DNA from: a virus
Strand: one strand, 5' to 3'
Length of the DNA stretch: 20,763 nt
Virus record (IMG/VR): IMGVR_UViG_3300017714_000224
Coordinates: 1-20,763 of that record
Part shown: in pieces, positions 168-20,763 of the stretch
Layout of the letters: every line of letters starts with the position of its first letter
Numbering within the stretch: the first letter of the stretch is position 1
Position numbers and translations under genes: made by a program
Notes under the pieces: generated by a model
The model's database searches: none
The model's input: only the letters and a program-made list of their open reading frames with translations
What the model was told of the DNA's origin: nothing

Positions 168-306
168 AAGTTTCTCCTGACATTTTGTGCTTTTCTTTAC
201 GATTATATTTTGTTTTATCTTCTTCGACTTTTGTTACCGCATGCACAGGAGTAATTTTCCTATGTTTAGGCTTTTCAATTTTTAATGTAAATCCGTTAAA
301 CTTCAT
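157..306 (-). CDS. Small basic protein, 49 aa, unknown function
   Basis: ATG at 306-304 opens a 49-codon frame ending in TAA at 159-157. The start overlaps the last codons of the RimK-like gene (stop at 296) by 11 nt, and the stop overlaps the start of the next gene (167) by 11 nt, so it exactly bridges two genes in a tightly coupled operon. The product is very basic (about 13 Lys/Arg), starts MKFNGFTLKIEKPKHRK, and has no membrane segment or cysteine. No family is recognised. The fit between neighbours is the main argument that it is real. Otherwise the gap of about 130 nt would be non-coding, which is rare in this window. Confidence 0.6.
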   Translation of the reverse strand: MKFNGFTLKIEKPKHRKITPVHAVTKVEEDKTKYNRKEKHKMSGETYGR

Positions 307-1726
307 ATTTATCTTGTCTACTTGTATAATCGCTTAATGCAAAACGTTTGTTAACGTTAATTGCAACTCTAAATAATTTAATTGTATCTCTATTTAATAA
401 TAATTCACTCGCAGTATCTTTTAATGTTAAACCCAATTTTACTAAATATTTTTTATTATTAAATGTAATATTATGCTCAATCATTGGTCTTTCATCAACT
501 GCATCCATATGTCTAGCTTTTGAAATACCTAAAAGATCAGATGTAAATTTCTTACCTGATTTTTCCCAATGAACTTTTTTAGCTTTTTCATCTACTTTCA
601 TTTTTTCAACATTAAACATCGATGCATTCGTACCATTTCCAGAGTCAAGTTTAGCTCTTACTGGATCATGTTCTAATCCTTCTACTATAATACTTTCAAT
701 AAATCCTGCTTCTAATCTAAAGAAACTTCTTCGATTATCAGGATCTAAAAGATATTGTAGAAAAGCATCAAACGTTTTAACATCTGACATTTTCTTTGTT
801 TTCTTTTGAGTATATAAATCATAACCCATAAAATGAGATTTCACTCCTGGTGACCCATTTACTTCTAAAATATATACTTCTCCATTTACAATAGCATGAT
901 CAACACCAACAAAATATCCACCTACTGCTTTTGCAGCATCTATAACAATTTTAGCTTCTTTTACTGTTAATGTATGTGGTATTGTTTCTGCACCTAAATG
1001 CACATTCGATCTAAAATCTTTATTTTCTTTCTTTTGCCTTCTATGAGCACATGCTAATATATTACCATCGACTACTAATGTTCTATAATCTCCATCCATT
1101 TTTAAGAATTCTTGTAATATTAATTCTGCATCAAATTTCCATAAAGATTGACAAACAGAAACTAAAGAATCCATTGATTCTACTTTACTAACTCCAACAC
1201 CTTGTGTTCCTGTCATTGTTTTTATAATAACTGGAAACTTACCACCTACGGATTTATGTGCAAATTCTATACTCTCAACATTATTTAAAAGAACCGTTCT
1301 TGGTGTTTGAACATTCTGCCTATTTAGAGCAATAGTTGTTGACATTTTATTATCACATATCATCATAGCTTCTAAATCATTTACCATAAAAAATCCAACA
1401 GTTTGTAATGAAGAAATAATTGCTTGACCCGCTTTGGTTGCAATTGCTCCACCTCTAACAAAAACAATTGTTGAGTCAATATTCATCTCAAGTTTTTTAC
1501 CTTCACCATCAATATTTCTAAGCTCAACAGATCTTAATTCAACATCAGATTCACCTAAATATGCTTTATCAATATCAATTAGATTACATTTTATATCGTT
1601 AAAATCACACACATCGGACATTACTTTTGCTGCTGTTCCATCATCTAATGAATTAGCTAATATTACAACTTGAACCTTTTGAGAAGGTTCTGCGGCCTCA
1701 TGAATGTAATTTTTAGTATATAACAT
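296..1726 (-). CDS. RimK-like ATP-grasp ligase fused to a RimB-like retropepsin domain
   Basis: This 476-residue protein has two domains. Residues about 85-310 are an ATP-grasp fold of the RimK (ribosomal protein S6 glutamate ligase) type: K128, the IIKTMTGTQGVGVS nucleotide loop with K169, QEF with E206, and the metal-binding E288-x-N290 of YILEVNGSPG. Residues about 340-468 resemble the RimB / 'ATP-dependent zinc protease' retropepsin family: AKLDSG with D361, then ERPMIEHNITF, and LLLNRDTI followed by a hydrophobic segment ending near a conserved Arg, like the family's LLGR..L..RFLVD..RS. RimK adds glutamates to proteins and RimB trims them, so the fusion would hold writer and eraser together (inference). 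The first 11 residues, MLYTKNYIHEA, resemble the T4 capsid-targeting peptide. A late promoter box lies 5 nt before the ATG and no Shine-Dalgarno is visible. Confidence 0.85.
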   Translation of the reverse strand: MLYTKNYIHEAAEPSQKVQVVILANSLDDGTAAKVMSDVCDFNDIKCNLIDIDKAYLGESDVELRSVELRNIDGEGKKLEMNIDSTIVFVRGGAIATKAGQAIISSLQTVGFFMVNDLEAMMICDNKMSTTIALNRQNVQTPRTVLLNNVESIEFAHKSVGGKFPVIIKTMTGTQGVGVSKVESMDSLVSVCQSLWKFDAELILQEFLKMDGDYRTLVVDGNILACAHRRQKKENKDFRSNVHLGAETIPHTLTVKEAKIVIDAAKAVGGYFVGVDHAIVNGEVYILEVNGSPGVKSHFMGYDLYTQKKTKKMSDVKTFDAFLQYLLDPDNRRSFFRLEAGFIESIIVEGLEHDPVRAKLDSGNGTNASMFNVEKMKVDEKAKKVHWEKSGKKFTSDLLGISKARHMDAVDERPMIEHNITFNNKKYLVKLGLTLKDTASELLLNRDTIKLFRVAINVNKRFALSDYTSRQDKYEV

Positions 1727-1731
1727 AATCC

Positions 1732-1739
1732 TATTTATA
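1732..1739 (-). promoter_or_regulatory. T4-type late promoter box TATAAATA upstream of the RimK-like gene
   Basis: The minus strand reads TAGGTATAAATAGGATTATG: the stop of the GroES-like gene, the perfect 8-nt late box, 5 nt, then the start codon. T4 late boxes are centred near -10, so transcription would start at or next to the A of the ATG. The same box and spacing occur at 3703 and 8824. Confidence 0.7.
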
Positions 1740-1740
1740 C

Positions 1741-2007
1741 CTATTCGGATCTTATATAAGCTTTAATGTACTCTTGTTGTACTAAAACAGCAGCTTTACC
1801 TTCAACATTGACAGGCATAGATTTTGACCAATCAAGCCAAACACGATCACCTCTAAATAATCCATCAACATGTGGACCGTATTCTAATACAACTCCAGGT
1901 TTTGATGCTTTATCTAATTGTGTATCTGCAGATAGTATAATTCCACCTGCTGTTTTTTCTTCTTTTTCAGTTTCTGCCACTAAGACATAATCATTTCTTA
2001 CTTTCAT
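1741..2007 (-). CDS. GroES-like co-chaperonin (Gp31-like role)
   Basis: This 88-residue protein starts MKVRNDYVLVAE and carries EKTAGGIILS at residues 17-26, the mobile-loop signature of GroES (SAGGIVLT in Escherichia coli) that docks on GroEL. The remaining beta-barrel elements follow: GVVLEYGP at about 38-45, RGDRVWLD at about 52-59, and a C-terminal VLVQQEYIKAYI strand. GroES is about 97 residues and T4 Gp31 is 111, so this is slightly short, with a reduced roof segment. In T4 the phage co-chaperonin is needed to fold the major capsid protein, and the same role is likely here (inference). Its start lies inside the 3' end of the preceding ORF, and the late promoter of the RimK-like gene follows its stop by one base. 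Confidence 0.85.
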   Translation of the reverse strand: MKVRNDYVLVAETEKEEKTAGGIILSADTQLDKASKPGVVLEYGPHVDGLFRGDRVWLDWSKSMPVNVEGKAAVLVQQEYIKAYIRSE

Positions 2008-2284
2008 TTTCCCATTCCTTTAGTTTTTTTAATTCTCGATCTACTATTTTTTCTAAATCCTCTATATCAGGCATAGTATCGTAACCTGAAACAAATTCTT
2101 CATCAGTGGTGGAGCTGACAGGGGTCGAACCTGCGACCTCATCCGTGCAAGGGACGCGCTCTCCCAACTGAGCTACAGCCCCACTTTTTTTCTTTCCCCA
2201 AATCAAATCCCAATTATCTGCATATTTGCTTTCATCTGAATTTCTGCGTTTGGAACCTTTGCCTCCATGCCATTGTTTACTCAT
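1991..2284 (-). CDS. Small conserved N-terminal protein read through an in-frame tRNA gene
   Basis: The 97-codon ORF has three parts. Residues 1-33 (MSKQWHGGKGSKRRNSDESK, then YADNWDLIWGKKK) look like a short conserved protein common in T4-like marine phages. Residues 34-59 are simply the in-frame translation of the tRNA-Ala gene (AVAQLGERVPCTDEVAGSTP is the familiar peptide that tRNA genes yield when translated). Residues 60-97 form a charged helix with an internal Met (MPDIEDLEKIVDRELKKLKE) that could start independently. No stop codon separates the parts. Either the tRNA was inserted into or at the end of the gene and removed its stop, or only the first part is functional. RNase P cutting would destroy any mRNA translated across it. 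The start is well supported; the true protein end is uncertain. Confidence 0.5.
   Translation of the reverse strand: MSKQWHGGKGSKRRNSDESKYADNWDLIWGKKKSGAVAQLGERVPCTDEVAGSTPVSSTTDEEFVSGYDTMPDIEDLEKIVDRELKKLKEWENESKK
2107..2182 (-). tRNA. tRNA-Ala, anticodon UGC
   Basis: A full cloverleaf can be drawn by hand. The acceptor stem GGGGCTG pairs with CAGCTCC and contains a G3-U70 wobble, the alanine identity element. The D arm is GCTC-AGTTGGGA-GAGC. The anticodon arm CGTCC-CTTGCAC-GGATG has TGC at 2147-2149. The T arm is GCAGG-TTCGACC-CCTGT. The discriminator base is A and CCA is encoded in the DNA (2107-2109). The gene is 76 nt, much richer in G+C than its surroundings, and lies in frame inside an ORF. 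Confidence 0.95.
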
Positions 2285-2300
2285 TTAACTTTTTTTCCGT

Positions 2301-2308
2301 TATAAATA
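2301..2308 (+). promoter_or_regulatory. Plus-strand TATAAATA box (possible late promoter)
   Basis: A perfect TATAAATA lies on the plus strand, 10 nt before an ATG at 2319-2321 that opens a 44-codon, Lys/Met-rich ORF ending at 2453. Everything else here is transcribed on the minus strand, so this may be chance in AT-rich DNA. The 2285-2396 stretch otherwise holds no convincing minus-strand gene. Confidence 0.25.
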
Positions 2309-2396
2309 GATATAGAATATGACGATAAAGAAAGCATTTAAAAAATTTCATAAAATGATGAAATCGGGAAGAATCAATAAAATAGTAAATATAATG

Positions 2397-2558
2397 TTAC
2401 CAATGATGGATGATACCTGCTACGATAAAAAAACAAGTAGCAAAATTTACTAAAACCACAATAGATCTCATTCCAGCGACATGGTCACTGAAGCGATCAT
2501 CCTCGTTTTTTGCTTTTCCTCCGAGCGATTCTGCCCAAACTTTCCATATATATTTCAT
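2397..2558 (-). CDS. Small single-pass membrane protein, 53 aa
   Basis: ATG at 2558-2556 overlaps the TGA of the SET-domain gene (ATGA) and opens a 53-codon frame ending in TAA at 2399-2397. It begins MKYIWKVWAESLGGKAKNED, a hydrophilic amphipathic segment. A single hydrophobic helix of about 20 residues follows (RSIVVLVNFATCFFIVAGII, residues 31-50), then HHW at the C-terminus. It is too short for most gene callers, but the overlap and the clean hydrophobic segment make it convincing. I recall similar small MKY.WK.W-type membrane proteins in marine myoviruses, without a known function. A holin-like or superinfection role is possible but nothing here shows it. Confidence 0.75.
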   Translation of the reverse strand: MKYIWKVWAESLGGKAKNEDDRFSDHVAGMRSIVVLVNFATCFFIVAGIIHHW

Positions 2559-2875
2559 TCATAATACTCTTGTAGTGTGTAATAAATTGTTAACTCTTCA
2601 CCTTCGTATACAGGTCGAGTAGTATATAATTCTCTTTGATCACCGTGATGATAATGTATATTATTGTTTACGAAACAATTTGGATCCTCAGAATGATTTA
2701 AAAATCCACCTAAAGGTGTTCTAATCCAATCTCTTCTTTGAGAACACCATATATGAGTTTCTCCTAAAAATACTCCAGCTTTAAAATCTTCGGTCGCTAT
2801 TATTCCGTTTCCGTGCACTCCAGGTCCAACTTTTAAACCATCACACAATGGTTTATATCCATTATCAAAATTCAT
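2555..2875 (-). CDS. Minimal SET-domain protein (probable protein lysine methyltransferase)
   Basis: This 106-residue protein is essentially a bare SET domain. Residues 15-39 (KVGPGVHGNGIIATEDFKAG, then VFLGE) match the SET N-terminal signature. N60-H61-S62 with P65-N66 is the NHS..PN cofactor/active-site motif. GEELTIYY at 92-99 is the C-terminal motif with the catalytic tyrosine region. SET enzymes transfer methyl groups from S-adenosylmethionine to lysines of proteins. The pre- and post-SET zinc regions of eukaryotic enzymes are absent, as in other small phage and bacterial members. The substrate is unknown. It starts 2 nt after the upstream stop and overlaps the small membrane gene by ATGA. 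Confidence 0.85.
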   Translation of the reverse strand: MNFDNGYKPLCDGLKVGPGVHGNGIIATEDFKAGVFLGETHIWCSQRRDWIRTPLGGFLNHSEDPNCFVNNNIHYHHGDQRELYTTRPVYEGEELTIYYTLQEYYE

Positions 2876-2877
2876 AA

Positions 2878-3084
2878 TTATTCCTTATCTACGTATACTA
2901 TTTTAATTCCTCGTCTTACGAGTTCATTTCTACATTTTTGTTTAATTCTTGGTCTTCCATTTGCGCTATTAATATATTCAAATAGCTCATCTTTTGGCAT
3001 ACCTTTCATATAGTAATTTGTTGTTGTTAATTGTCCAGTTTTTCTATCTCTTACTGTTTGAGATGGTTTAAATTTTATTGGCAT
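2878..3084 (-). CDS. Conserved small basic phage protein, 68 aa
   Basis: This 68-residue basic protein starts MPIKFKPSQTVRDRKTGQLT, with a central YYMKGMPKDELFEYINS and a C-terminal basic RNELVRRGIKIVY stretch. I recall proteins of nearly the same layout (MPIKFKPSQ.VRDR.TG....YYMK.MP...L, then KQK.RNELVRRG) in T4-like marine phages, but no function is established to my knowledge. No cysteines or membrane segments are present. It lies between the HAD phosphatase (1 nt gap) and the SET-domain gene (2 nt gap), so all three are probably on one transcript. The basic C-terminal half could bind nucleic acid, which is speculation. Confidence 0.8.
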   Translation of the reverse strand: MPIKFKPSQTVRDRKTGQLTTTNYYMKGMPKDELFEYINSANGRPRIKQKCRNELVRRGIKIVYVDKE

Positions 3085-3085
3085 A

Positions 3086-3697
3086 TCACTTCACCGTTGT
3101 TATAGATCCATTCTTATTCACTCGGTATGCTTCAAACGTTACATCAGGATATTCTTCCTTTAGTGATGTAAGCGCTAATAAGTTTTCCATTGCATCATCA
3201 AATAATCTTATTCTTTTATAATTTCCAGTATCTAAATATTTTCTAAATACTACCTCTTTGTTTTTTGCGGAATTGTCTAAACCAATATTTCCAGCCCTTT
3301 CGATATAGACATCCTTCATATCTATACCGTGGGCCTCGAATGTAGCTACAAATAAGTTTTTGTCATCCATATCTCCGCGGGCAGTGACAACAATTACTTT
3401 TGAACCTTTTTTCGTAGCATTTTTGATAATCATTTTTGCTTTCGCAACCATTTTACCAACAGGTGTTGAGGTTTGATTAAATAGCTTTGCTGATTTAAAC
3501 TGACCGTAATCAAAAGATTCTCCAGATTTTAACTTATAAGAATTATATTCTATATTTGTTAAATCTTTTATAACCTTTCCACCTTTTTTTACTTGTATTT
3601 TTGCAGTAGTATGAAAAAGAGTTTCATCTATATCAAAAATCGTTAGGCCCTTTCCAGCAGCTGCTTCGATTATGTATTGTATTAATTCTCTTTTCAT
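3086..3697 (-). CDS. HAD-superfamily phosphatase with capsid-targeting-like N-terminus
   Basis: This 203-residue protein has the HAD motifs in order. FDIDETLF at 21-28 holds the nucleophile D22 and acid/base D24. VVTARG at 103-108 is motif II with T105. K146 or nearby lysines could serve as motif III. RLFDDAMEN at 164-172 is motif IV with D167/D168. The layout is close to the phosphatase half of T4 polynucleotide kinase and to stand-alone HAD proteins of marine phages, so nucleic-acid end or nucleotide phosphatase activity is plausible but unproven. The N-terminus MKRELIQYIIEAAAGKG precedes the fold and resembles the T4 capsid-targeting peptide with a possible cut after E11 (IIE|A). A late promoter box sits exactly 5 nt before the ATG and no Shine-Dalgarno is visible. 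Confidence 0.87.
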   Translation of the reverse strand: MKRELIQYIIEAAAGKGLTIFDIDETLFHTTAKIQVKKGGKVIKDLTNIEYNSYKLKSGESFDYGQFKSAKLFNQTSTPVGKMVAKAKMIIKNATKKGSKVIVVTARGDMDDKNLFVATFEAHGIDMKDVYIERAGNIGLDNSAKNKEVVFRKYLDTGNYKRIRLFDDAMENLLALTSLKEEYPDVTFEAYRVNKNGSITTVK

Positions 3698-3702
3698 ACT
3701 TC

Positions 3703-3710
3703 TATTTATA
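3703..3710 (-). promoter_or_regulatory. T4-type late promoter box TATAAATA upstream of the HAD gene
   Basis: The minus strand reads CGTATATAAATAGAAGTATG. The perfect TATAAATA contains the TAA stop of the upstream 72-aa gene and is followed by 5 nt and the HAD start codon. Predicted initiation is at or next to the ATG. There is no Shine-Dalgarno in between. Confidence 0.7.
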
Positions 3711-3924
3711 TACGTGGATTAGCTATTTTTAGATGTTTTAATACAACATCCATTTTATCTTCTGCATCTGCTATTTTAGCTATTTCTATATCCATAGTTT
3801 CTAAAATATCATGATGTTCTCCTACACCAACAGCATTTTCTAAGAAGATTTCAACATTGGCTTTTGCCATTTTAATTTGACCTTCATAGTGTGCTAATAA
3901 TGCGTTTAATATTAAATCTCTCAT
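3706..3924 (-). CDS. Conserved small helical phage protein, 72 aa
   Basis: This 72-residue, mostly helical and acidic protein starts MRDLILNALLAHYEGQIKMA, with a central VEIFLENAVGVGEHHDILET and a C-terminal helix. Small proteins with the VFL.N.VGVGEH.DI signature are, from memory, widespread in T4-like marine phages, with no known function. Its start overlaps the exonuclease stop by 4 nt (ATGA). Its own stop codon is embedded in the late promoter box of the HAD gene, so it belongs to the upstream transcript while the HAD gene can be transcribed separately. No catalytic motif is visible. Confidence 0.8.
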   Translation of the reverse strand: MRDLILNALLAHYEGQIKMAKANVEIFLENAVGVGEHHDILETMDIEIAKIADAEDKMDVVLKHLKIANPRI

Positions 3925-4580
3925 GAGTTTTTCCTCGACTTAAAGTCATTAATTACACTGATCAATTGGCCGTCCCAATGATCTCGATGTTCAACGAATA
4001 TCTGTGGACCAGCATCTCCTGCAATTGCAACTACTAATTGAGTAATAGGTTGACCCGTACGTTCTTCCCACATAATCGCATAAGCACATGCTTGCATAAA
4101 GTATGAACTAATCCATTCTTTCTTTTTAAATTTTGCTGATGTTTTCCAATCGATGATACTTATTTTACCATCCCAAACTCCAACACAATCTACCGTTCCA
4201 GCTACGCCTAAATGTTTTGAATACATTCTTTTTTCTGTAGCGTATACCTTTGTCAATTTATCATCAATGATAGGTTTAATATCTCTAAAATTAGACATTG
4301 CTATCATATGATCTGTTTCTTTAGGTTCATTTAAAATATATGATTCAATCATATCATGAACTTCATTACCTCTTCCAGCTGCGTTTCGTGAAACTCTGTT
4401 AGCTTCTTCTTCACCAACTCTAGCTCTCCATTTTGCAATTCCTGCAGCACTTAATATAGATAATACATTTGTTATACTATAGTATTTGTTTTCTTCAGGA
4501 TCTTGATAAAATCTACCACCTGGACCATTATTAACTTGATTTAATTTATAATCTTCTGTATTTAATTCTAATTCAAACAT
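3921..4580 (-). CDS. PD-(D/E)XK nuclease, MGME1/Cas4-like exonuclease family
   Basis: This 219-residue protein carries a GRGNEVH motif at 69-75 (a conserved His upstream of the core, as in RecB/Cas4/MGME1-type exonucleases). GTVDCVG follows with D131, then SIIDWKTS at 141-148 with D144 and K146 as the D-x-K centre, and a QACAYA motif with Q163. Together these are the PD-(D/E)XK active site that binds metal and cuts DNA. Related phage proteins are often annotated as exonucleases. A role in replication, recombination or host DNA breakdown is likely but cannot be narrowed. The start overlaps the glycosyltransferase by 8 nt, with TAAGG as a weak Shine-Dalgarno about 10 nt before the ATG. Confidence 0.85.
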   Translation of the reverse strand: MFELELNTEDYKLNQVNNGPGGRFYQDPEENKYYSITNVLSILSAAGIAKWRARVGEEEANRVSRNAAGRGNEVHDMIESYILNEPKETDHMIAMSNFRDIKPIIDDKLTKVYATEKRMYSKHLGVAGTVDCVGVWDGKISIIDWKTSAKFKKKEWISSYFMQACAYAIMWEERTGQPITQLVVAIAGDAGPQIFVEHRDHWDGQLISVINDFKSRKNS

Positions 4581-5649
4581 TATTTAATACCTTATTAAGT
4601 CTTTCCATATCTTTCTGTCTTGTATATTTTTTTTTAAAATATTGAGATGTTTCTTCTCTATCAAAGGATGCATTAGCTACTTCATATATAACTTTACAAC
4701 CATGAATAACACCTTCATATCCAACTAAACCGCATGTTTCTTTTAAAGTTGGCCATAACATAATATGTGTATCTGAAAGAGATTCCATAATATCAGAATG
4801 TAATGTATTTACATGTAAATTTATACCTGATTCTTTTACCATTTCCATAGCTTTAATAGTTTGTTGTTTAGTTAAATTTTCTTCGCGAGTGTAAACATGG
4901 CAATCCCATCCGTTTTTATCTAATTTTAACATTACATTAATTGCTTGAATAAATCCTTTATCTACAACAGGTCTTCCAACGAATACGATTTTATCTTTCT
5001 TAACTGGTTTTAAATCATGAGCATCTTCTAAATAATGTACGATATCGAATCTTCCATTATAAAATCCTTGTGATTCTAACGTATCACCCCATTTCTCTCT
5101 TTCCCAATCTCTTATTCTTTGCGTTCTAATTCTTGGTTCCCATTCTCTTGTTCTGTATGCTTTCATTGTTTCATTAGCTACCCAATCATTCGGAGATAAT
5201 ACTTTTCCACCAGCTTGAATAATCGCAAGTTGATTAAATATTGCAGTAAACGTTGGAATTGCTGCTTTTGTTAATTCATAGTAATGTTGCATATATAAAA
5301 TTTTATCTAATATACCTTCGAAATTCTTTCTTAATACACCAGAAGTCATCATCGATGAGAGTAATATCACATCATAATCATCATATCTTTCTTCAACAAA
5401 TTCATAAAATGTTTTAAAATCAAATTTGTGTGTATTACCTTCTTTTTTGTTATCGTATGGTCTAGATTTTAACGGTCCTAAAATAATATTAGGATCTGTA
5501 GTAATTGTATCGTTAGGTACTAAAAGTGTTACATCGTGTTCAGATTCCAATAATAGATCATATATATTTGAAACCCATTTTTCTACACCACCTACAAAAG
5601 ATTCACGATCATACGTTGATGATCTTGGCCATTCTAACAAAATTTTCAT
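4573..5649 (-). CDS. GT-B glycosyltransferase (GT4-like)
   Basis: This 358-residue protein has a GT-B layout. The N-terminal Rossmann half has the Gly-rich acceptor-side loop FVGGVEKW at 18-25. The C-terminal donor half starts at KIVFVGRPVVDKG (220-232), the usual start of glycosyl transferase group 1 domains. KETCGLVGYEGVIHG at 303-317 matches the E-x7-E nucleotide-sugar motif with E304 and E312. A retaining transferase using a nucleotide sugar is expected. The acceptor could be phage DNA, a virion protein or host surface glycan; nothing in the sequence decides this. Its length is normal for the family. It overlaps the upstream 82-aa gene by ATGA and the downstream nuclease by 8 nt. Confidence 0.85.
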   Translation of the reverse strand: MKILLEWPRSSTYDRESFVGGVEKWVSNIYDLLLESEHDVTLLVPNDTITTDPNIILGPLKSRPYDNKKEGNTHKFDFKTFYEFVEERYDDYDVILLSSMMTSGVLRKNFEGILDKILYMQHYYELTKAAIPTFTAIFNQLAIIQAGGKVLSPNDWVANETMKAYRTREWEPRIRTQRIRDWEREKWGDTLESQGFYNGRFDIVHYLEDAHDLKPVKKDKIVFVGRPVVDKGFIQAINVMLKLDKNGWDCHVYTREENLTKQQTIKAMEMVKESGINLHVNTLHSDIMESLSDTHIMLWPTLKETCGLVGYEGVIHGCKVIYEVANASFDREETSQYFKKKYTRQKDMERLNKVLNNV

Positions 5650-6438: not shown

Positions 6439-6445
6439 AATATAT

Positions 6446-6497: not shown

Positions 6498-6574
6498 GAC
6501 TAAGTTTTTACTTGGGCAATCCCTCCTTATAATTAATGTTAAAAAAACATCATATAGGTAGAATAATCACCTCC

Positions 6575-8349: not shown

Positions 8350-8378
8350 ATTATACCATAGTTTTAGAGTTTTGTACA
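8350..8378 (-). promoter_or_regulatory. Early-type promoter TGTACA-N17-TATAAT before the 129-aa gene/rnh
   Basis: TGTACA (8378-8373), a 17-nt spacer ending in TATGG and TATAATATA (from 8355) form a promoter nearly identical to those at 6446 and 12818, all preceded or flanked by A-rich DNA. The TAA stop of the GIY-YIG-like gene lies inside the TATAAT. The start codon at 8341 follows the -10 by 8 nt. Confidence 0.75.
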
Positions 8379-8818
8379 TGTTTTTCTTTTAAATATTTGA
8401 CAGAATTTCCACCAATACGTACGTTGATAATCCCATTGTAGTAATCCTCACGAAGTAATACATCTTTTTCGAACTGAACTTTTGCTTCCAAATAAGCACA
8501 TTCACCCTTAGTTTTACAAAGAATAAGAATCTCGCGACAGAAAGCTTCAGCTCCCATCGTTTCAATATCCTCCAAAAGCGCTTTGCTGCTTCCGTAATAT
8601 TTTCTCCAATCACTTTCTACTAATAGTTTTTTTCTTCTTTTTCGTGTTTTTGTAATGGGTAATGTTTTTTTACTCCAAAAGAACTTCTTACCGATATATT
8701 TCATACCTGTAAATCGATTTGTTATCTGATAAACAAACCCATACCAATCTTGACCATACCTTTCATACGTAAAAGGTTCGTCGGGTGCAAATTTGAGTCC
8801 TTGATATTTCCAATCCAT
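8351..8818 (-). CDS. GIY-YIG-like nuclease domain protein
   Basis: This 155-residue protein aligns by eye with the GIY-YIG nuclease core. GFVYQITN at 27-34 is the GIY strand with Y30. KYIGKK at 40-45 is the YIG motif with Y41-I42-G43. R72 in SDWRKYYGSS is a candidate catalytic arginine. FCREIL follows, then E111 (YLEAK) as the metal-binding glutamate, and YYN with N128. The order and spacing fit I-TevI and the T4 Seg enzymes. No DNA-binding module follows, so this is a catalytic domain alone with a basic insert (RKRRKK, 59-64). It may be a homing endonuclease relic or a domesticated phage nuclease. A late promoter box sits 5 nt before the ATG. Its last codons and stop overlap the promoter at 8350. 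Confidence 0.72.
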   Translation of the reverse strand: MDWKYQGLKFAPDEPFTYERYGQDWYGFVYQITNRFTGMKYIGKKFFWSKKTLPITKTRKRRKKLLVESDWRKYYGSSKALLEDIETMGAEAFCREILILCKTKGECAYLEAKVQFEKDVLLREDYYNGIINVRIGGNSVKYLKEKHVQNSKTMV

Positions 8819-8823: not shown

Positions 8824-8831
8824 TATTTATA
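8824..8831 (-). promoter_or_regulatory. T4-type late promoter box TATAAATA upstream of the GIY-YIG-like gene
   Basis: The minus strand reads GATGTATAAATACATATATGG. The perfect TATAAATA includes the TAA stop of the zinc-ribbon gene, then 5 nt, then ATG at 8818. The spacing is identical to the boxes at 1732 and 3703, and there is no Shine-Dalgarno in the spacer. Confidence 0.7.
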
Positions 8832-15141: not shown

Positions 15142-15383
15142 TATTCAGCCTTAGCTGCTTTTGCTTTAGCTTCCTTTGCTACTCTTCGAGCGTTCATTCT
15201 TTCTACAAACTTTCTTCCTGCTCTTGTGCGACCATCATATTGAGGAACAGCTCTTTTCTTCTTTTTCTTATCATGAACTGCATCTGCTGGCATTGAAACA
15301 CCACCACTCGCAACAGAGTTTGCTGCAGCATCTTCTTGACAATGTGCTGCTAATTCCCACTCTTTGTATCTTTCTATCTTCAT
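15141..15383 (-). CDS. Small basic Ala/Lys-rich protein, 80 aa
   Basis: This 80-residue protein starts MKIERYKEWELAAHCQEDAA, has a Gly/Ser/Ala linker (NSVASGGVSMPADA), a run of five lysines, and the sequence VPQYDGRTRAGRKFVERMNA followed by an Arg/Lys/Ala helix (RRVAKEAKAKAAKAE). The composition suggests an N-terminal helix joined to a basic, disordered or nucleic-acid-binding tail. I recognise the 'DGRTRAGRKF.ER' phrase as recurring in marine phage proteins but know no function. It is translationally coupled upstream (ATGA) and downstream (TAATG). Confidence 0.7.
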   Translation of the reverse strand: MKIERYKEWELAAHCQEDAAANSVASGGVSMPADAVHDKKKKKRAVPQYDGRTRAGRKFVERMNARRVAKEAKAKAAKAE

Positions 15384-15988
15384 CTTTTTATCTCTCCAAT
15401 AGATATATATAATTTTTGCTTTGTTAATACATGTAATACTTCATATATTGGAGTATTAAACACATATCCTTTTGGTTCAGTAAAGTCTTCTACTAATACC
15501 TTTGAATTTTTATAACCTAACATTTCACCCGTTACAGGTGATGGAACATCTTCGGTTAATATATATGTTCCAGGATTTAAAGATCCTTGTGTTTGAATCC
15601 ATGTATCTGAGGATTCTTTTAAACTTTCCCAATCAAAATCAACTAAGTCTTCAACTGCAGATTTTAATTGAGCATCAGTTAAATTTCCATTTTCTTTTAG
15701 AAGGTATAATGCTGTAGCCCATGAAGCTAAAACAGATTTACCGAACGGTATTTTACCTACTAATCTTTTTAGATTAAATACCAATCTATGAAAAATAGTA
15801 TAAGAAGCTTTTTCTGCTGGTGTTTCTGGACTTCTTAGTTTTGTACCAACTTTATCTACAAGACCTAATTTAAAGGCTTGAGTTTTCTCCCACTTTTGTG
15901 TAAGCAAGCGAACGAATCTAAAAGCATATACTGTATCTCCAGCTCTACTTAAAAATCCTTCTTCTAAAGGTCTTACTTGATAACTCAT
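15380..15988 (-). CDS. Conserved T4-like marine phage protein, 202 aa
   Basis: This 202-residue protein has a conserved-looking N-terminal half: FLSRAGDTVYAFRFVRLLTQ at 12-31, WEKTQAFKLGLVDKVG, then TPAEKASYTIFHRLVFNLKR and LVGKIPFGKSVLASWATALY. The C-terminal beta-rich part ends YEVLHVLTKQKLYISIGEI. The phrase RAGDTVYAFRF.RLLT..WEKT.AFKLG is familiar from several T4-like phages (memory only), where I cannot name a role. No catalytic motif or signal sequence is visible. It sits between the 122-aa protein and the small basic protein with 4-nt overlaps on both sides. Confidence 0.8.
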   Translation of the reverse strand: MSYQVRPLEEGFLSRAGDTVYAFRFVRLLTQKWEKTQAFKLGLVDKVGTKLRSPETPAEKASYTIFHRLVFNLKRLVGKIPFGKSVLASWATALYLLKENGNLTDAQLKSAVEDLVDFDWESLKESSDTWIQTQGSLNPGTYILTEDVPSPVTGEMLGYKNSKVLVEDFTEPKGYVFNTPIYEVLHVLTKQKLYISIGEIKR

Positions 15989-16353
15989 ATTTCTCTTAGT
16001 CTCTTAACTATTTCTTTATCCAAACTGATATCAATTTTATCTTCTTCTTTTAAATAGTTTAAAAAGACTAAGAAAGGTTTGATATACGAATAATGTTCTT
16101 CATTAATCTTAAACCAAACCATTCTATCAGCAGCTTCTACACCAAATACATTGTATATAACAATGAGATGGTTTAATATCAAGCGTTCTTGTAAATCACC
16201 TGACATTTCATAACGTTTTAACAGTCTTTTTAAATATTTAAATCGACTTAAATCTTCCTTAAACTCCAAAATATCGGTAGCTTCAGGGTTATTATAATGT
16301 TGTCCAGCGTATAACTCAAAGTTCCTTGCTGTTAGTTTTTCAAATATCTTCAT
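15985..16353 (-). CDS. Conserved T4-like marine phage protein, 122 aa
   Basis: This 122-residue, helical protein has NFELYAGQHYNNPEATDILE at 11-30, then FKEDLSRFKYLKRLLKRYE, LQERLILNHLIVIYNVFGVE, and a C-terminal KPFLVFLNYLK. From memory this pattern is a widespread small family of T4-like phages (DUF7207-like), of unknown function. The Shine-Dalgarno AGGAAG lies 4-5 nt before the ATG, inside the 3' arm of an 11-bp inverted repeat, and a TATAAT overlaps the same arm. Translation could therefore differ between read-through and locally initiated transcripts. Confidence 0.8.
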   Translation of the reverse strand: MKIFEKLTARNFELYAGQHYNNPEATDILEFKEDLSRFKYLKRLLKRYEMSGDLQERLILNHLIVIYNVFGVEAADRMVWFKINEEHYSYIKPFLVFLNYLKEEDKIDISLDKEIVKRLREI

Positions 16354-16357
16354 AATC

Positions 16358-16399
16358 TTCCTATTATATTATAGTATACAGTACTACTTATAATAGGAA
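16358..16399 (-). promoter_or_regulatory. 11-bp inverted repeat over the RBS and -10 of the 122-aa gene
   Basis: TTCCTATTATA (16358-16368) and TATAATAGGAA (16389-16399) pair over 11 bp around a 20-nt loop. In the minus-strand transcript the AGGAA Shine-Dalgarno of the gene starting at 16353 is in the 3' arm, paired with UUCCU. TATAAT boxes lie at 16373-16368 and 16368-16363. This resembles T4 late genes whose RBS is hidden in read-through mRNA. Confidence 0.55.
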
Positions 16400-16405
16400 A
16401 AACTG

Positions 16406-17485
16406 TTAAGCTTTAAGCTGTGGCCAAACGTCTATTACGTCCTCTTTGTCCCAACCATATGTGTCCGGATCTGTTAATAAACTTACAATAAGCTTATGAT
16501 CACCAGTTATATCAGCTGTTCCTTGACGATTGTTAACTTTAATTTTTACTTTAAACTTTTTCTCAGCAGCTTTAGTTTCTTTTGGAGAACCTATCCAATC
16601 AACATCAACTGTTGTTTTTCTTTCTGACATTGAAGTAAGCTTATTAATTTCAGCAGTTGAAATAGTAATAGTAGCTTCTTTTACTGGTTCCATTTCATCT
16701 TCTTCTTCATCAGCTTCATAGTTCTTATCTACGTAATCAAAGAATTCTTTCTTTTTATCACCTTCAAGTTCTGCTGGTGAATCAACTCCGAATTTCTTAA
16801 GCGCTTTATTAAAGAAATCTTGATACTTCTTTTGCTTAGGAGATAATTCTTCCTCTTTTGGTTCTGATTTTTCTGCAAGTTCTAATGCATCTTTTGCAAC
16901 TTGAACCCACTCATTTTGCTCACCAAATTCTTGTTCTAAATCTTTAAGCTTATCTTTTTTATCAGCACCCATATATGCAACGAAATACGCTACGATATCT
17001 TTTTCGCTTCCAGTAAGAGTCATTTTATCAGGACCGAACATATTGTCGCCTTTACCAGGCATTTTTTTAAGTTTTAACCTAAACTTTTTAGCTTGTTTTT
17101 CGATAGGATATTCGTCGAAATCAGTCATAGTTGTAATAGATGCTTCTACTATTTCTTCAGCTTCTTCTTTGACAATACCTCCATTTTCATTTTCACCAGT
17201 TTTTTTGATAACATGTTTAGCTTTGAATTCTTTTTCGCCTTTAGCTCTTGGTTCTTCAGGTGATTCTGCCATTAAATCATCATGATTTGCTGCAGCAAAT
17301 TCTTCAGCTTCTTCTTTTGTTTCAAATTCTTTGACAACATCGCCTTTTACGTTTTTGACAACAAATTTGTCTCCCTTTTCAGAAACATGATCTTTTGGAT
17401 CCATTTCCTTCAAAGGTGTTTTTCCCTCCAGAACGTTACTAACTGTGTCAGCAATGCTTAGAGTTTCTTTATCTTGCAATTTCAT
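16406..17485 (-). CDS. Large acidic, probable head-internal protein with duplicated domain
   Basis: The start at ATG 17485 is supported by AGGAGG about 7 nt upstream; a longer frame to 17554 would overlap the neighbour. The 359-residue protein is very rich in Glu, Lys and Asp. A small domain at 38-72 (FVVKNVKGDVVKEFETKEEA) is followed by a repeat-like domain at about 115-172 (QAKKFRLKLKKM then TLTGSEKDIVAYFVA). Next is a helical unit at 214-256 (SPKQKKYQDFFNKALKKFGV, then DSPAELEGDKKKEFF), and a second repeat at about 271-338 (KAAEKKFKVKIKVN then DITGDHKLIVSLLT). Glu-Ala or Glu-Gly sites precede domains (VLE20|G, IVE114|A, VKE270|A), resembling T4 Gp21 cleavage sites. I infer a scaffold-like or packaged internal head protein. 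Confidence 0.75.
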   Translation of the reverse strand: MKLQDKETLSIADTVSNVLEGKTPLKEMDPKDHVSEKGDKFVVKNVKGDVVKEFETKEEAEEFAAANHDDLMAESPEEPRAKGEKEFKAKHVIKKTGENENGGIVKEEAEEIVEASITTMTDFDEYPIEKQAKKFRLKLKKMPGKGDNMFGPDKMTLTGSEKDIVAYFVAYMGADKKDKLKDLEQEFGEQNEWVQVAKDALELAEKSEPKEEELSPKQKKYQDFFNKALKKFGVDSPAELEGDKKKEFFDYVDKNYEADEEEDEMEPVKEATITISTAEINKLTSMSERKTTVDVDWIGSPKETKAAEKKFKVKIKVNNRQGTADITGDHKLIVSLLTDPDTYGWDKEDVIDVWPQLKA

Positions 17486-17496
17486 GGTTTCCTCCT

Positions 17497-17838
17497 TTAT
17501 TGCATTAATAACATTCCAGATGTAACTGTTGCACCCGCAACTACTACTATCCAAAATACTTTGTTTATTACGTTAACTACTACTGCATTTTGATTTACTG
17601 TACCTTCCAGTCTTTCCATTCTGCGTGTTAGTTCACCAATCATTTCTGATTGTTGTTTACTGAAACTAGCAAGAGTAGTGATTTTTTCTTCTGCACGAGC
17701 TAACGATATTATCGCCTCGGACATTTTATCAATCTTCTCTTCAATTCTATCCAGTCTATCTGATTGTTCCATATGATCCCTTTTTACCTGTGCTATTTCT
17801 TTTTCAGTCATACCACGATTTGTTCCTTTTGTTGCCAT
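17497..17838 (-). CDS. Tail-anchored coiled-coil membrane protein, 113 aa
   Basis: The start at ATG 17838 (TAATG overlap with the upstream stop) is preferred over the in-frame ATG at 17883. The 113-residue protein has a short basic start (MATKGTNRGMTEKEIAQVKR), a long heptad-like coiled coil (about 20-85, DRLDRIEEKIDKMSEAI and onwards), and one C-terminal membrane helix (about 94-112, VFWIVVVAGATVTSGMLLM). This topology resembles XhlA-type and other phage membrane coiled-coil proteins associated with holins, but the similarity is general. It lies between probable head proteins. A holin accessory, a membrane-bound assembly factor or an unknown role all remain possible. Confidence 0.75.
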   Translation of the reverse strand: MATKGTNRGMTEKEIAQVKRDHMEQSDRLDRIEEKIDKMSEAIISLARAEEKITTLASFSKQQSEMIGELTRRMERLEGTVNQNAVVVNVINKVFWIVVVAGATVTSGMLLMQ

Positions 17839-18167
17839 TATCCGTCCACCGGTGCGTTTGCACGCCATTGATAACAAGACCAATATCTAGCTTTCCATTT
17901 TGGTCCAGGGTTATCACAATTAAATCTAGCTCTAAAAGACCTTAATCTTTTGGGATCGTCTCTTTTTATATCCATATTTGGATCTCCGAATCTTAATTTA
18001 ATTACATTACCCTTTTCGTTCTTTACATATACATGAAATTTAGCTTTACCATCATCTGATCTAATAGGATCATTAAGCTTAACTTTTCTTCCATCATATT
18101 CTGCAGCTTCAATTATATGATTGTAACTGCAATCTTCACAACAAAAATATTCAGAAAATGTTTTCAT
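17838..18167 (-). CDS. Conserved FRARFNCDNPGP-type protein with capsid-targeting-like start
   Basis: This 109-residue protein starts MKTFSEYF, like the T4 capsid-targeting peptide (MKTYQEF...), and has NHIIEAAEYDG at 16-26, where IIE|A is a possible prohead-protease site. The following domain is beta-rich (KFHVYVKNEKGNVIKLRFGD), then PNMDIKRDDPKRLRSFRARF and NCDNPGPKWKARYWSCYQW. The last blocks (GDP.M.IKRD.P.R..SFRARH.CD....K..ARYWSC..W) are a widespread phage signature in my memory, with no defined function. The Cys pairs (C9/C10, C13) precede the proposed cut. It overlaps both neighbours (TAATG). A packaged internal protein is the working guess. Confidence 0.78.
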   Translation of the reverse strand: MKTFSEYFCCEDCSYNHIIEAAEYDGRKVKLNDPIRSDDGKAKFHVYVKNEKGNVIKLRFGDPNMDIKRDDPKRLRSFRARFNCDNPGPKWKARYWSCYQWRANAPVDG

Positions 18168-18685
18168 TATGTTATTACATCGAACTCCATATCATCTGAC
18201 CAGTATATAGCCCATTTGTCCCATATACTATCTGATACATACATATATCGCAGATCGCCTTTATACTCTCCATCGATTACTTGATATATAAATCCAACAA
18301 AGCCATATTTCATTTTTAGGCCATTTGCTATATCATTAGCGAGTATACGCAATTTACCTGCTGCATTATACTGTGAAAGACCTCTATCATAATCATAATC
18401 ACTTCTAAGATCTTTGATTTGTGGTTTATATTTCTTTTTAAAATCATCAATACTTTTAGCTATGATATATTTCTTATTGGCTTTATCACCATGTGGTACT
18501 ACACCGAAACCTAAAATTTGTACTTTACTTCCTATACCGTAAGGATTATCTCCTTTTTTAAATCCGGATCTTTTAGCTAAACTGCCTTTTGCAAGAATCT
18601 GTACTTTATCACCAGCTTTTAGCTTAGTTATACCTATCTTACCCTCTGCGAGATATTCTTCTCTAATTTGTGTTAATGTTTTCAT
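18167..18685 (-). CDS. Probable head-internal protein, 172 aa, unknown fold
   Basis: This 172-residue protein starts MKTLTQIREEYLAEGKIGIT; LAE14|G fits the (L/I)xE|(A/G) site of T4-type prohead proteases. After it, beta-strand-rich sequence with repeated KVQIL phrases (KAGDKVQILAKG at 23-34 and GSKVQILGFG at 52-61) suggests a small barrel of SH3-like type. A helical SIDDFKKKYKPQIKDLRSDY stretch and a C-terminal YMYVSDSIWDKWAIYWSDDM region follow. No family is recognised. The ATGA overlap with the transglutaminase-like gene and TAATG overlap with the next gene put it in the same operon. Confidence 0.72.
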   Translation of the reverse strand: MKTLTQIREEYLAEGKIGITKLKAGDKVQILAKGSLAKRSGFKKGDNPYGIGSKVQILGFGVVPHGDKANKKYIIAKSIDDFKKKYKPQIKDLRSDYDYDRGLSQYNAAGKLRILANDIANGLKMKYGFVGFIYQVIDGEYKGDLRYMYVSDSIWDKWAIYWSDDMEFDVIT

Positions 18686-19122
18686 TTCTTTAGTGTCCTC
18701 ACAACTTTACTTATAATCATTTTAAGAGCAGTTTGATATGCCCAACCATAACCATAAAAAATATGGAAAGTATGATTCTTTTCTATTTTTGATTTTGGAC
18801 CAAACTTTTTAGTCCAATTATCTACATATTCTCCCTTATATCTTAAAACTGCATGTGACATTTTTAATTTACTTGGTCCAACACAACAAATTCCTGCTTG
18901 ATGAGTGATTAACATCCACCACATTTTTAAATCGTTTTCTCCACAAAGTCTCCATAAGATAGATAATGCGTAATCTTCACAATCACCAACATATTTTCCT
19001 TCTGCATCAACGGATCTAATAATTTTCCATGCATCCGCCATACCATATTGTTCTTTATCTTTTCTATATTTCCATTTAGAATTGAATGAACGTACTATCT
19101 TATTTCTTTCTTTAATATCCAT
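18682..19122 (-). CDS. Transglutaminase-like cysteine peptidase (BTLCP-like)
   Basis: This 146-residue protein has the Cys-His-Asp triad pattern of transglutaminase-like cysteine peptidases: GDCEDYALSILWRLC with C48, MSHAVLRY with H90, and YVDNWTKKF with D101. The phrase GDCEDYA followed by a helix is the signature of bacterial BTLCP/DUF920 proteins. The fold appears minimal and complete. Members cleave or crosslink proteins; the target is unknown. The gene is in the presumed head-protein operon, with AAAAGG about 8 nt before the start and ATGA overlap with the next gene. A C-terminal hydrophobic/basic helix (YGYGWAYQTALKMIISKVVR) may bind membrane. A processing or host-takeover role is inference. 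Confidence 0.78.
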   Translation of the reverse strand: MDIKERNKIVRSFNSKWKYRKDKEQYGMADAWKIIRSVDAEGKYVGDCEDYALSILWRLCGENDLKMWWMLITHQAGICCVGPSKLKMSHAVLRYKGEYVDNWTKKFGPKSKIEKNHTFHIFYGYGWAYQTALKMIISKVVRTLKK

Positions 19123-19125
19123 ATA

Positions 19126-19650
19126 CTACCTTTTTAAATCGTATCTAAATGTATTTCCTTTATTTTGACCAGATTTGGTTACTCCATATCCTGCCATTTT
19201 TGCTAATACTTGTACTTTTGGCCAAGCTTTTTCAAATTGTCCTTTAATTTTTAGTTTATGCATATCATCCATAATTTTTTGTACGATAGCATTTACTGTT
19301 TCCATATCGCTCATTACTAATGGTGAACCTTCATCAAGGTTATATGATTCATCAAACATACCTGAATCTTTCATCATTCTAAGAGCATCTTTCTTTGCTT
19401 TATCAGCATTATTTTTGTTGATTTTTTCAACTGCTTTCTTGATCATATCAAGACGTTTCTTTTTCTCTTTATCCGATAATGCTTCCGTTTGAAATTCTTC
19501 ATTAGCTTTCGCTAATAGATCTGCAATTTTAGCAAGAGTTTCTTTATCTTTCTTAGATATAGCTTTAAGCTTCTTATCATTAGCAATCTTTCTTAAAGAT
19601 TTACCATATTCGACAGTAGATTCTGCTCTTAAATTATTAAAATTTTTCAT
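19126..19650 (-). CDS. Lys-rich helical protein, probable head-internal, 174 aa
   Basis: I use ATG 19650, one base after the upstream stop, rather than an in-frame ATG at 19704 inside the neighbour. The product starts MKNFNNLRAESTVEYGKSLR, sharing the MKN[FL]N(N/E)LR opening with the protein encoded directly upstream. It is highly charged and helical (KKDKETLAKIADLLAKANEE, DKEKKKRLDMIKKAVEKINK). The C-terminal domain is more globular (LVMSDMETVNAIVQKIMDDM, then VLAKMAGYGVTKSGQNKG). No enzymatic motif is visible. It is probably a scaffold-like or packaged internal protein (inference from composition, opening sequence and neighbours). Confidence 0.7.
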   Translation of the reverse strand: MKNFNNLRAESTVEYGKSLRKIANDKKLKAISKKDKETLAKIADLLAKANEEFQTEALSDKEKKKRLDMIKKAVEKINKNNADKAKKDALRMMKDSGMFDESYNLDEGSPLVMSDMETVNAIVQKIMDDMHKLKIKGQFEKAWPKVQVLAKMAGYGVTKSGQNKGNTFRYDLKR

Positions 19651-19651
19651 A

Positions 19652-20122
19652 TTAATCTCTGTCCATATCAATAGTTCCGTCCCATTGGCCTCTTTCCACA
19701 CCATTCATATATGAATATAGTGCTTGTTCACATTCAACTAGACTATTGTAAATATCGTTTGGATTACCACCTTTTGTATAACCTGTTTCAGCAGTATACT
19801 GAAAGTCGTCTTGCATCTTTGCAACTTTATGAAGTGCTTTAATCATATTTTTGATGTTTTTTACTTCTTTCTTTTTGTCAAACTCTTTACCATCAAACTT
19901 AGTTGGTTTGTACATAGGTATTCTAGCTTCAGATAAATCTTCTGTAACTTCTTCAAACATGGGTGCAAGTGCTTTGATTACTTGACCTAAATATGATGGA
20001 TCCATATTAGAAATCATATCTTTTTCTTGATTAGTAACACCTTTAATATTTTTTACTTTATTCCAAATATTAGTGTATTTTCCTTTTTCAGTAAGAGTTC
20101 TTAATTCATTTAGATTTTTCAT
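19652..20122 (-). CDS. Helical protein with SEA-type cleavage motif, 156 aa
   Basis: This 156-residue protein starts MKNLNELRTLTEKGKYTNIW, paralleling MKNFNNLR in the next gene. It has a central VTEDLSEARIPMYKPTKFDG, where LSE|A (about residue 66) fits a T4-type prohead-protease site. After that point the sequence is mainly helical (VKNIKNMIKALHKVAKMQDD), with an aromatic C-terminal VECEQALYSYMNGVERGQWD. Cleavage would separate an N-terminal part of about 66 residues from a 90-residue body. The family is not recognised. The start overlaps the upstream stop (ATGA). Confidence 0.7.
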   Translation of the reverse strand: MKNLNELRTLTEKGKYTNIWNKVKNIKGVTNQEKDMISNMDPSYLGQVIKALAPMFEEVTEDLSEARIPMYKPTKFDGKEFDKKKEVKNIKNMIKALHKVAKMQDDFQYTAETGYTKGGNPNDIYNSLVECEQALYSYMNGVERGQWDGTIDMDRD

Positions 20123-20763
20123 TTTATTTTTCCTTTAATAATATCGTCTAGGTTGTTATCTAACCATTCAATAAAATCATCCGGATCATCAGTATTAACC
20201 TCACCATTATCCATTGCCCATTGCATTAAATCTTCTTCTGCTTTCTTAGATAACTCTAATGAACCTTTCTTTGCTGCATTTTGAAGTTCTTTTTTGTGCT
20301 TACGAGCTATGTCTTTCATTTTCATAGCTTCACTCACTGTCGCAGATTCATACTTAGGTGCTTTCATTCTTTTACCTACCATAACACCAGCTTTAGTTTT
20401 TATAGAGTTTTCAATCACGTTTGATTCTTTAATTTTTCCTAACATATGTTGAATAGCTCCGTAAACTTCTTCACGAGTCATAGTATCGTTCCAACCTAAG
20501 CTAGTAGGATATGTTCTTAGTTCATTTGATGCAACTAACCACAAATCATCTTCAGACTTTTTGTCACCACCAACTTTTGCTGCTTTAAGTGCATCGTTTA
20601 GCTTTTCATTATACTTCATATTTTTCTTTTGATTTTTATCAATAAATGCAAAGTAATAATCTCCATCTCTAACAGGATATCTTAAAGCTGTCCAAACTTT
20701 TGGTCTAGCTGAATTACCTGGGTGGTAATCTTTTTTCATTTCTTCTCTTGCTTTATCTAAATC
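20119..20763 (-). CDS. Partial charged protein, 5' end outside window
   Basis: The frame is open to the window edge: DLDKAREE precedes the first Met seen (20739), so the gene continues upstream and that Met need not be the start. The visible 214 residues include a globular part (KVWTALRYPVRDGDYYFAFI, then LWLVASNELRTYPTSLGWND), an EEVYGAIQHMLGK helix, and SATVSEAMKMKDIARKHKKE, where VSE|A resembles a prohead-protease site. A helical, acidic C-terminus follows (AEEDLMQWAMDNG, DDFIEWLDNNLDDIIKG). The function is not recognised; it is probably part of the head/internal-protein module. The stop overlaps the next start (ATGA). Confidence 0.7.
   Translation of the reverse strand, partial: DLDKAREEMKKDYHPGNSARPKVWTALRYPVRDGDYYFAFIDKNQKKNMKYNEKLNDALKAAKVGGDKKSEDDLWLVASNELRTYPTSLGWNDTMTREEVYGAIQHMLGKIKESNVIENSIKTKAGVMVGKRMKAPKYESATVSEAMKMKDIARKHKKELQNAAKKGSLELSKKAEEDLMQWAMDNGEVNTDDPDDFIEWLDNNLDDIIKGKIK

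What the first reader, a model, noticed from the sequence alone, without database searches (positions are those of the whole stretch)
296..20763. T4-like capsid-targeting peptides on enzymes and internal proteins: a possible injected-protein set
T4 internal proteins start MKTYQEFIAE and are cut after the Glu by the prohead protease. Here the RimK-RimB fusion starts MLYTKNYIHE|A (same length, cut after E10), and the HAD protein MKRELIQYIIE|A. The 17838-18167 protein starts MKTFSEYF with IIE|A at residue 20, and the 18167-18685 protein MKTLTQIREEYLAE|G. Others carry LSE|A, VSE|A, IVE|A or LTE|K. The RimK-RimB and HAD genes also have late promoters, as packaging would require. This suggests that enzymes acting on host proteins or nucleic acid are packaged in the head and injected with DNA.
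Basis: partly seen in the sequence, partly recalled or inferred. Interest (0 to 1): 0.66.

Follow-up and report, generated by a model that had tools for sequence, protein, structure and literature searches.

The report
Marine phage enzymes with head-packaging tags
Several proteins of this uncultured T4-like marine phage, among them an enzyme that probably adds and removes glutamate chains on other proteins, begin with the short tag that phage T4 uses to load proteins into its head, so they are probably packed in the virus particle and may be delivered into the host with the DNA.

Summary
The main N-termini are as reported. The loose motif (L/I/V)xE is uninformative, but the full T4 capsid-targeting pattern (hydrophobic 4, aromatic 7, I/L/V 8, E10) is far above chance: in 1,545 non-redundant proteins of the window and relatives it peaks at E10 (37 seen, background 0.7 per position).

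The leader is conserved in homologs: 22 HAD loci, and 80 RimK-RimB loci (E10 invariant in a 23-sequence alignment). In 55 of those 80, RimK-RimB lies between terminase and tail-sheath genes. All six RimK-RimB genomes searched encode a gp21-type protease. In cyanophage S-CREM2 (published proteomics) the exact pattern marks 5 of 25 non-structural virion proteins against 1 of 161 undetected ones (p=1.6e-4). The RimK-type enzyme of the distant phage YerA41 was detected in particles.

Packaging is well supported by inference, not shown for this phage; injection and host targets remain inferred. T4 targeting peptides are known; RimK-RimB as cargo, its abundance and the mosaic cluster look new in the papers searched.

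The parts
296..1726 (-). RimK-RimB fusion: RimK-type ATP-grasp glutamate ligase plus C-terminal retropepsin-like (RimB, PF05618-type) domain, catalytic D361 in D-(S/T)-G
   Evidence: PF08443 E=2.3e-29; best PDB fold matches are RimK; C-terminal domain matches bacterial retropepsins 2pma, 9g58, 9g59; PF05618 in homologs
1697..1726 (-). Codons of the leader MLYTKNYIHE, predicted cut after E10 before A11
   Evidence: E10 invariant in 23 homologs; sibling MFDFTNYITE|A matches T4 residues 4, 7, 8, 10; Mosig MQVQPFKNYLEE|A, Melnitz MTQKFSQFITE|E
1732..1739 (-). TATAAATA, late-promoter-like, 5 nt before the RimK-RimB start
   Evidence: conserved in relatives of the same clade
3086..3697 (-). HAD-superfamily phosphatase (acid-phosphatase / polynucleotide-kinase-phosphatase-like)
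   Evidence: PF03767 E=3.5e-8; phrog_415 E=4e-6
3665..3697 (-). Codons of the leader MKRELIQYIIE, predicted cut after E11
   Evidence: pattern kept in 21 of 22 homologous loci, directly before the core (two of those starts lie upstream of the tblastn match)
3703..3710 (-). TATAAATA, late-promoter-like, 5 nt before the HAD start
   Evidence: same in L009-L017 and L019, absent in L018
16406..17485 (-). Mosaic core-like protein with internal hydrophobic-x-E sites (IVE|A at 114, VKE|A at 270)
   Evidence: module after IVE|A is a separate gene behind MKNYKDIRE| in G004
17838..18167 (-). Small protein of phrog_7595 family with leader MKTFSEYF and IIE|A at residue 20
   Evidence: core starts just after the site; variable leaders ending in a similar site in many homologs; C48C1 homolog starts MKKFKQYIDE|G
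18167..18685 (-). Protein with leader MKTLTQIRE|EYLAE|G
   Evidence: matches second leader class; no homolog found
19126..19650 (-). Mosaic protein, corrected start MKNFNNLRAE|S, then modules B, A and C
   Evidence: same modules in other order or as separate genes in G004 and G010
19652..20122 (-). Cluster protein, leader MKNLNELRTLTE|K (weak)
20119..20763 (-). Cluster protein, open at the window edge; true N-terminus not in the window, VSE|A internal

Best explanation
The window is a fragment of a marine T4-like phage in which RimK-RimB, the HAD phosphatase and several proteins of the 16406-20763 cluster carry N-terminal capsid-targeting sequences of the T4 type. Likely mechanism: (1) the genes are transcribed late; (2) leader residues 4 and 7 dock the proteins on the scaffold core during prohead assembly; (3) the gp21-type protease cuts after the Glu of hydrophobic-x-E and frees them; (4) the enzymes stay in the DNA-filled head; (5) at infection they enter the cell with the DNA, where RimK-RimB would add and trim glutamate tails on a host protein (S6 is the known RimK target) and the HAD protein would act on nucleotides or nucleic-acid ends. 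Steps 1-4 are inferred from sequence, relatives and published virion proteomics; step 5 and the targets are inference from T4. The confidence given is for steps 1-4 for RimK-RimB and HAD; step 5 I put at about 0.6, the S6 target at about 0.35.
For: Positional peak of the full T4 pattern at E10 at exactly the residues that T4 genetics identified (PMC9026906). Leader pattern conserved while the following linker varies: 22 HAD loci, RimK-RimB with E10 invariant in 23 sequences. Leader specific: 25 of 411 distinct genes in 80 RimK-RimB loci, all RimK-RimB or HAD. RimK-RimB between terminase and tail-sheath genes in 55 of 80 loci. gp21-type protease in all six RimK-RimB genomes searched and in G010. 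S-CREM2 virion proteome: 5 of 25 against 1 of 161, p=1.6e-4. S-SZBM1 virion cytidylyltransferase starts MRFRQFIIE|A. YerA41 RimK-type protein g112 identified in particles by LC-MS/MS.
Against: No virion data for this phage or its near relatives. The window holds no protease gene. The YerA41 homolog lacks a T4-type leader. Many RimK-RimB relatives have D, K or E after the Glu, not the A/G usual in T4, so cutting there is less sure (T4 work shows that targeting can occur without cutting). S-SZBM1 gp191 and gp192 have leaders but were not detected. Authors of S-CREM2 note that such proteins could be contaminants. The S-CREM2 association was found after looking at the leaders and rests on one proteome.
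Confidence: 0.83

Rival explanations
1. The tagged proteins are packaged, but they serve head assembly or the particle itself (core filling, trimming of glutamate-rich scaffold) and do nothing in the next host.
For: The cluster proteins at 16406-20763 are small, charged and mosaic like core components; scaffold proteins of relatives are very glutamate-rich, and RimB cuts polyglutamate (PMC11957791).
Against: Most T4 internal proteins and Alt are ejected (PMC9026906); a folded ATP-dependent ligase and a phosphatase are odd core fillers, and ATP is not expected in a packed head.
Confidence: 0.12
2. The N-terminal peptide is a conserved docking or localisation motif with another role in the infected cell; the proteins are not packaged and virion detections are contamination.
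For: S-CREM2 authors mention contamination; YerA41 particles also contained many replication enzymes.
Against: Contamination does not predict that virion-detected proteins share the leader at T4 positions; gene placement in the head/tail operon; identity with experimentally defined T4 residues.
Confidence: 0.05
3. Chance resemblance in N-terminal sequences.
For: True for plain (L/I/V)xE and for the internal 'other' sites taken as targeting peptides.
Against: About 54-fold excess of the full pattern at E10 and absence of a peak with D, K or Q; conservation in homologs of about 50% identity.
Confidence: 0.01

Closest known systems
T4 capsid-targeting sequence of internal proteins IPI-III, with gp21 processing (Mullaney and Black; review PMC9026906)
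   Same: Ten-residue leader; hydrophobic/aromatic at 4 and 7, I/L at 8, E at 10; gp21-type protease in relatives; various unrelated proteins behind one type of leader
   Different: Cargo here includes RimK-RimB and HAD enzymes; residue after the Glu is often D, K or E in relatives; packaging not shown experimentally
Virion-associated enzymes of cyanophages S-CREM2, S-SCSM1, S-SZBM1 (cytidylyltransferase/NMNAT, SAM hydrolase, kinase)
   Same: The S-CREM2 and S-SZBM1 enzymes examined carry the same type of leader; cytidylyltransferase genes with leaders flank this cluster in relatives
   Different: A targeting sequence is not mentioned in the passages of those papers that I read; RimK-RimB is not in the S-CREM2 or S-SZBM1 lists
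Bacterial RimK, RimB and the hybrid RimBK (PMC11957791)
   Same: RimK ATP-grasp fold and retropepsin-like domain with D-(T/S)-G
   Different: Phage order is ligase then protease, the bacterial hybrid has RimB at the N-terminus; the phage version adds the leader
SPN3US / phiKZ-like ejection proteins cut by a prohead protease (PMC5694885)
   Same: Head-packaged proteins cut after Glu in a short motif
   Different: Their propeptides are mostly much longer; virus group differs
Polyvalent proteins of phages and conjugative elements (PMC5512222, abstract only)
   Same: Multidomain chains proposed to be delivered with the DNA
   Different: Here the modules are small and joined at prohead-protease-like sites; no sequence relation was tested

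Membership tests
T4-type capsid-targeting sequence | Residues 4 and 7 hydrophobic/aromatic, residue 8 I/L, E at residue 10, leader of 10-19 residues | tested here: met
   RimK-RimB sibling MFDFTNYITE exact; window RimK-RimB has Y7, I8, E10 with Y at 3 in place of 4; HAD shifted by one (L5, Y8, I9, E11)
T4-type capsid-targeting sequence | Gp21-type prohead protease in the same genome | tested here: inconclusive
   Absent from the 20.8-kb fragment; present in G010 and in six of six RimK-RimB genomes
T4-type capsid-targeting sequence | Protein found in mature virions | not testable with these tools
   Only by association: S-CREM2, S-SZBM1, YerA41 published proteomics
T4-type capsid-targeting sequence | Leader removed by cutting after Glu | not testable with these tools
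   No peptide-level data could be read
T4-type internal (ejected) protein | Enters the host with the DNA | not testable with these tools
   Inference from T4
T4-type late gene | TATAAATA placed upstream of the gene | tested here: inconclusive
   Count at chance; spacing is sharp (5-6 nt or about 18-28 nt) and shared with structural genes in relatives
RimK (S6 glutamate ligase family) | RimK ATP-grasp domain and fold | tested here: met
   PF08443 E=2.3e-29; PDB matches 5zct, 5zk6, 7qys
RimB retropepsin-like protease | D-T/S-G motif and retropepsin fold, PF05618 | tested here: met
   D361-S-G in the window, D and G invariant; PF05618 in L178 and Mosig though not in the window protein itself; fold match to bacterial retropepsins
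Prohead-protease-delimited mosaic proteins | Module boundaries coincide with hydrophobic-x-E sites | tested here: inconclusive
   Ratio 2.8 at well-supported boundaries, glutamate alone 2.1; clear single cases

The most novel reading that the evidence does not exclude
Marine T4-like phages carry protease-delimited cargo: small protein modules, shuffled like beads between genes, sit behind targeting leaders and are separated by hydrophobic-x-E sites, so that one gene yields several packaged peptides; alongside them a packaged RimK-RimB enzyme rewrites glutamate tails on host ribosomes from the first moment of infection.
Probability: 0.3. Interest if true: 0.8.

Novelty: new variant of a known kind. 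Interest (0 to 1): 0.62.

Why it matters
It gives a sequence rule that predicts which of the many unknown proteins of abundant marine T4-like phages travel in the virion, with a first check against published proteomics. It would explain why enzymes such as cytidylyltransferases keep turning up in cyanophage virions, a point that authors left open as possible contamination. It also names a new candidate cargo, a glutamate ligase-protease fusion with at least 502 related loci found in IMG/VR, that could modify host ribosomes from the start of infection.

Tried and rejected
Plain (L/I/V)xE|(A/G/S) as evidence: rejected, too common. The 'other' sites as targeting peptides: most are internal, re-read as module boundaries. 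TATAAATA count as evidence for late promoters: at chance, only spacing counts. YerA41 as proof of the leader: rejected, it has no T4-type leader. Module-boundary enrichment: real but moderate; [FYILVMW]xE ratio 2.8 at well-supported boundaries, but glutamate alone gives 2.1, so glutamate-rich linkers explain part. tblastn of HAD and of 18167-18685 against the phage collection found nothing, and 18167-18685 had no IMG/VR relative. No prohead protease in the window itself. A lax version of the pattern associates only weakly with S-CREM2 virion presence (p=0.02); the strict and exact-position versions are stronger. Not run: a full T4 proteome as positive control (T4 residues were taken from PMC9026906) and supplementary proteome tables (not available).
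Full report
What the window is. It is a 20.8-kb fragment of a virus record, with its credible genes on the minus strand, including a class I ribonucleotide reductase large subunit and a GroES-like protein. It is syntenic with larger T4-like marine contigs: G004 (49 kb), G011 (49 kb) and G010 (128 kb). G010 carries a gp21-type Peptidase_S77 gene (E=3.7e-44).

The observation. The four named N-termini are in the sequence. Two starts of the mechanical ORF list are too far upstream: 19126-19704 should begin at 19650 (MKNFNNLRAE|S) and 16406-17554 at about 17485; both corrected starts lie next to the stop of the preceding gene, and the second agrees with homologs (MKLQDKETL..., MKFNDDITM...).

Is it more than chance? 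The loose consensus is not. The full T4 pattern is. T4 genetics assign targeting to residues 4 and 7 and processing to residues 8 and 10, and gp21 cuts after L/I-x-E (PMC9026906). In 1,545 non-redundant proteins of the window and relatives, [hydrophobic]xx[FYW][ILVMF]xE occurs 37, 15 and 7 times with E at 10, 11 and 12, against 0.68 per position further in; replacing E by D, K or Q removes the peak. A second leader class, [FYL]xx[ILV][RK]E with E at 9, occurs 15 times against 0.41. These counts come from loci chosen around the cluster and include related families, so they show position, not genome-wide frequency.

HAD. Twenty-two IMG/VR loci encode it. The leader changes its letters but keeps its pattern, right before the core KGLTIFDID: MKRELIQYIIE|A, MKRKLLDLILE|A, MKRFEEYLIE|K, MKKFNEYITE|R, MKKFNEFLAE|R; the most distant homolog (L029) has no clear leader.

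RimK-RimB. An alignment-based scan found 502 related stretches in IMG/VR, of which 80 loci were kept. Of 37 distinct N-termini 29 match the strict pattern, 26 with E at residue 10. The exceptions include the window itself (Y at 3 in place of 4; Y7, I8 and E10 kept), a clade MKSISEYR...LEEE that keeps residues 4 and 7 and an LxE site, and truncated copies. E10 is invariant in a 23-sequence alignment, and is followed by a linker of variable length and sequence. The isolates Mosig (MQVQPFKNYLEE|A) and Melnitz (MTQKFSQFITE|E, TTG start; RimK part only) have the same design. The leader lies upstream of where bacterial RimK begins and is modelled with low confidence, as a loose end (residues 1-14 under pLDDT 50). 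The body folds like RimK; the C-terminal domain folds like bacterial retropepsins, and homologs hit PF05618. A bacterial RimBK hybrid is known with the opposite domain order (PMC11957791).

Gene context. In 55 of 80 loci RimK-RimB sits between the large terminase and tail-sheath genes, in a run that continues to tail tube, portal, head maturation protease, scaffold and major head protein. The window's own clade is not in that place. All six RimK-RimB genomes searched for the S77 protease have it. In those 80 loci 25 of 411 distinct genes carry the pattern with E at 9-13, and all are RimK-RimB or HAD.

Independent check on published proteomics. In S-CREM2 (PMC10665884, Table 3) the exact T4 positions are matched by gp6 (SAM hydrolase), gp13, gp14 (kinase), gp136 and gp154 (cytidylyltransferase), all found in virions, and by one of 161 undetected proteins (gp175, 55 residues). 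Against the 25 virion proteins that are not shell, neck, tail or lysis proteins this gives Fisher p=1.6e-4; for proteins of 75 residues or more it is 5 of 25 against 0 of 96. Against all 44 virion proteins that were read p is 0.0019. The Cas9-like gp12 has FASFMAE|A at residue 26. S-SZBM1 cytidylyltransferase, also in virions, starts MRFRQFIIE|A, while gp191 and gp192 have leaders but were not detected. YerA41 g112, a RimK-type homolog without T4 leader, was identified in particles. The association was looked for after the leaders had been seen, on one fully tabulated proteome, so it should be repeated.

The right-hand cluster. Proteins at 16406-20763 are mosaics. One module follows IVE|A inside 16406-17485 but is a separate gene behind MKNYKDIRE| in G004. 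Another follows LDE|G inside 19126-19650 but is a separate gene behind MKTFKDIRE|SNIEIDE| in G010. Two modules (A and B) occur in opposite order in the window and in G004. Across relatives, boundaries of shuffled homology carry [FYILVMW]xE 2.8 times more often than nearby positions when well supported; the D, K and Q versions show no excess, but glutamate alone gives 2.1. This fits chains cut by the prohead protease but does not prove it.

Promoters. TATAAATA lies exactly 5 nt before RimK-RimB, HAD and the gene 8351-8818. In relatives the spacing falls mostly into 5-6 nt and about 18-28 nt, and in G010 the short class also precedes genes that look structural. By T4 late promoter geometry (own knowledge) 5 nt would start the mRNA at the ATG.

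Conclusion. Packaging of RimK-RimB and HAD by a T4-type targeting sequence is the best explanation (0.83). Ejection into the host and the host targets are inference. The kind is known from T4, and its spread was foreseen in PMC9026906; the RimK-RimB cargo, its abundance and the mosaic cluster were not found in the literature searched, which covers open-licence papers only.

Noticed in passing
window 1732-1739, 3703-3710, 8824-8831; also G004, G010, G011: TATAAATA stands at two sharp spacings before start codons, 5-6 nt or about 18-28 nt. The short class would give leaderless late mRNAs and in G010 precedes genes that look structural.
   Followed up: partly
L090:5409-6014, L030:3192-3707, L092:2581-3789, L116:9843-11084: Other leader-bearing proteins in relatives: an adenylate kinase (PF00406), a possible 5'-nucleotidase (PF06941, under cut-off), cytidylyltransferase-like proteins with DUF5824, and DUF6267 proteins.
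   Followed up: partly
S-CREM2 gp12 (OR473000, 7704-10313): A protein annotated as Cas9/Csn1-like nuclease, detected in virions, has FASFMAE|A at residue 26, a late-placed targeting-like site.
   Followed up: no
L037, L047, L049, L068, L071, L076, L087: Homologs of the 17838-18167 protein occur at the end of long reading frames (about 650-1,185 residues ahead of it) that start with a nucleotidyltransferase-like domain.
   Followed up: partly
window 4573-5649 against L005:1774-2937: In an otherwise near-identical contig this gene is 387 residues long against 358 in the window, an in-frame length difference.
   Followed up: no
window 2555-2875: Small protein with GGFLNHSEDPNC, which by eye resembles a SET domain (protein methyltransferase); no targeting leader; matches phrog_28741 of unknown function.
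   Followed up: no
window 19126-19650: Very weak Pfam match to the crassvirus cargo protein 1 domain (E=0.047); may be chance.
   Followed up: no
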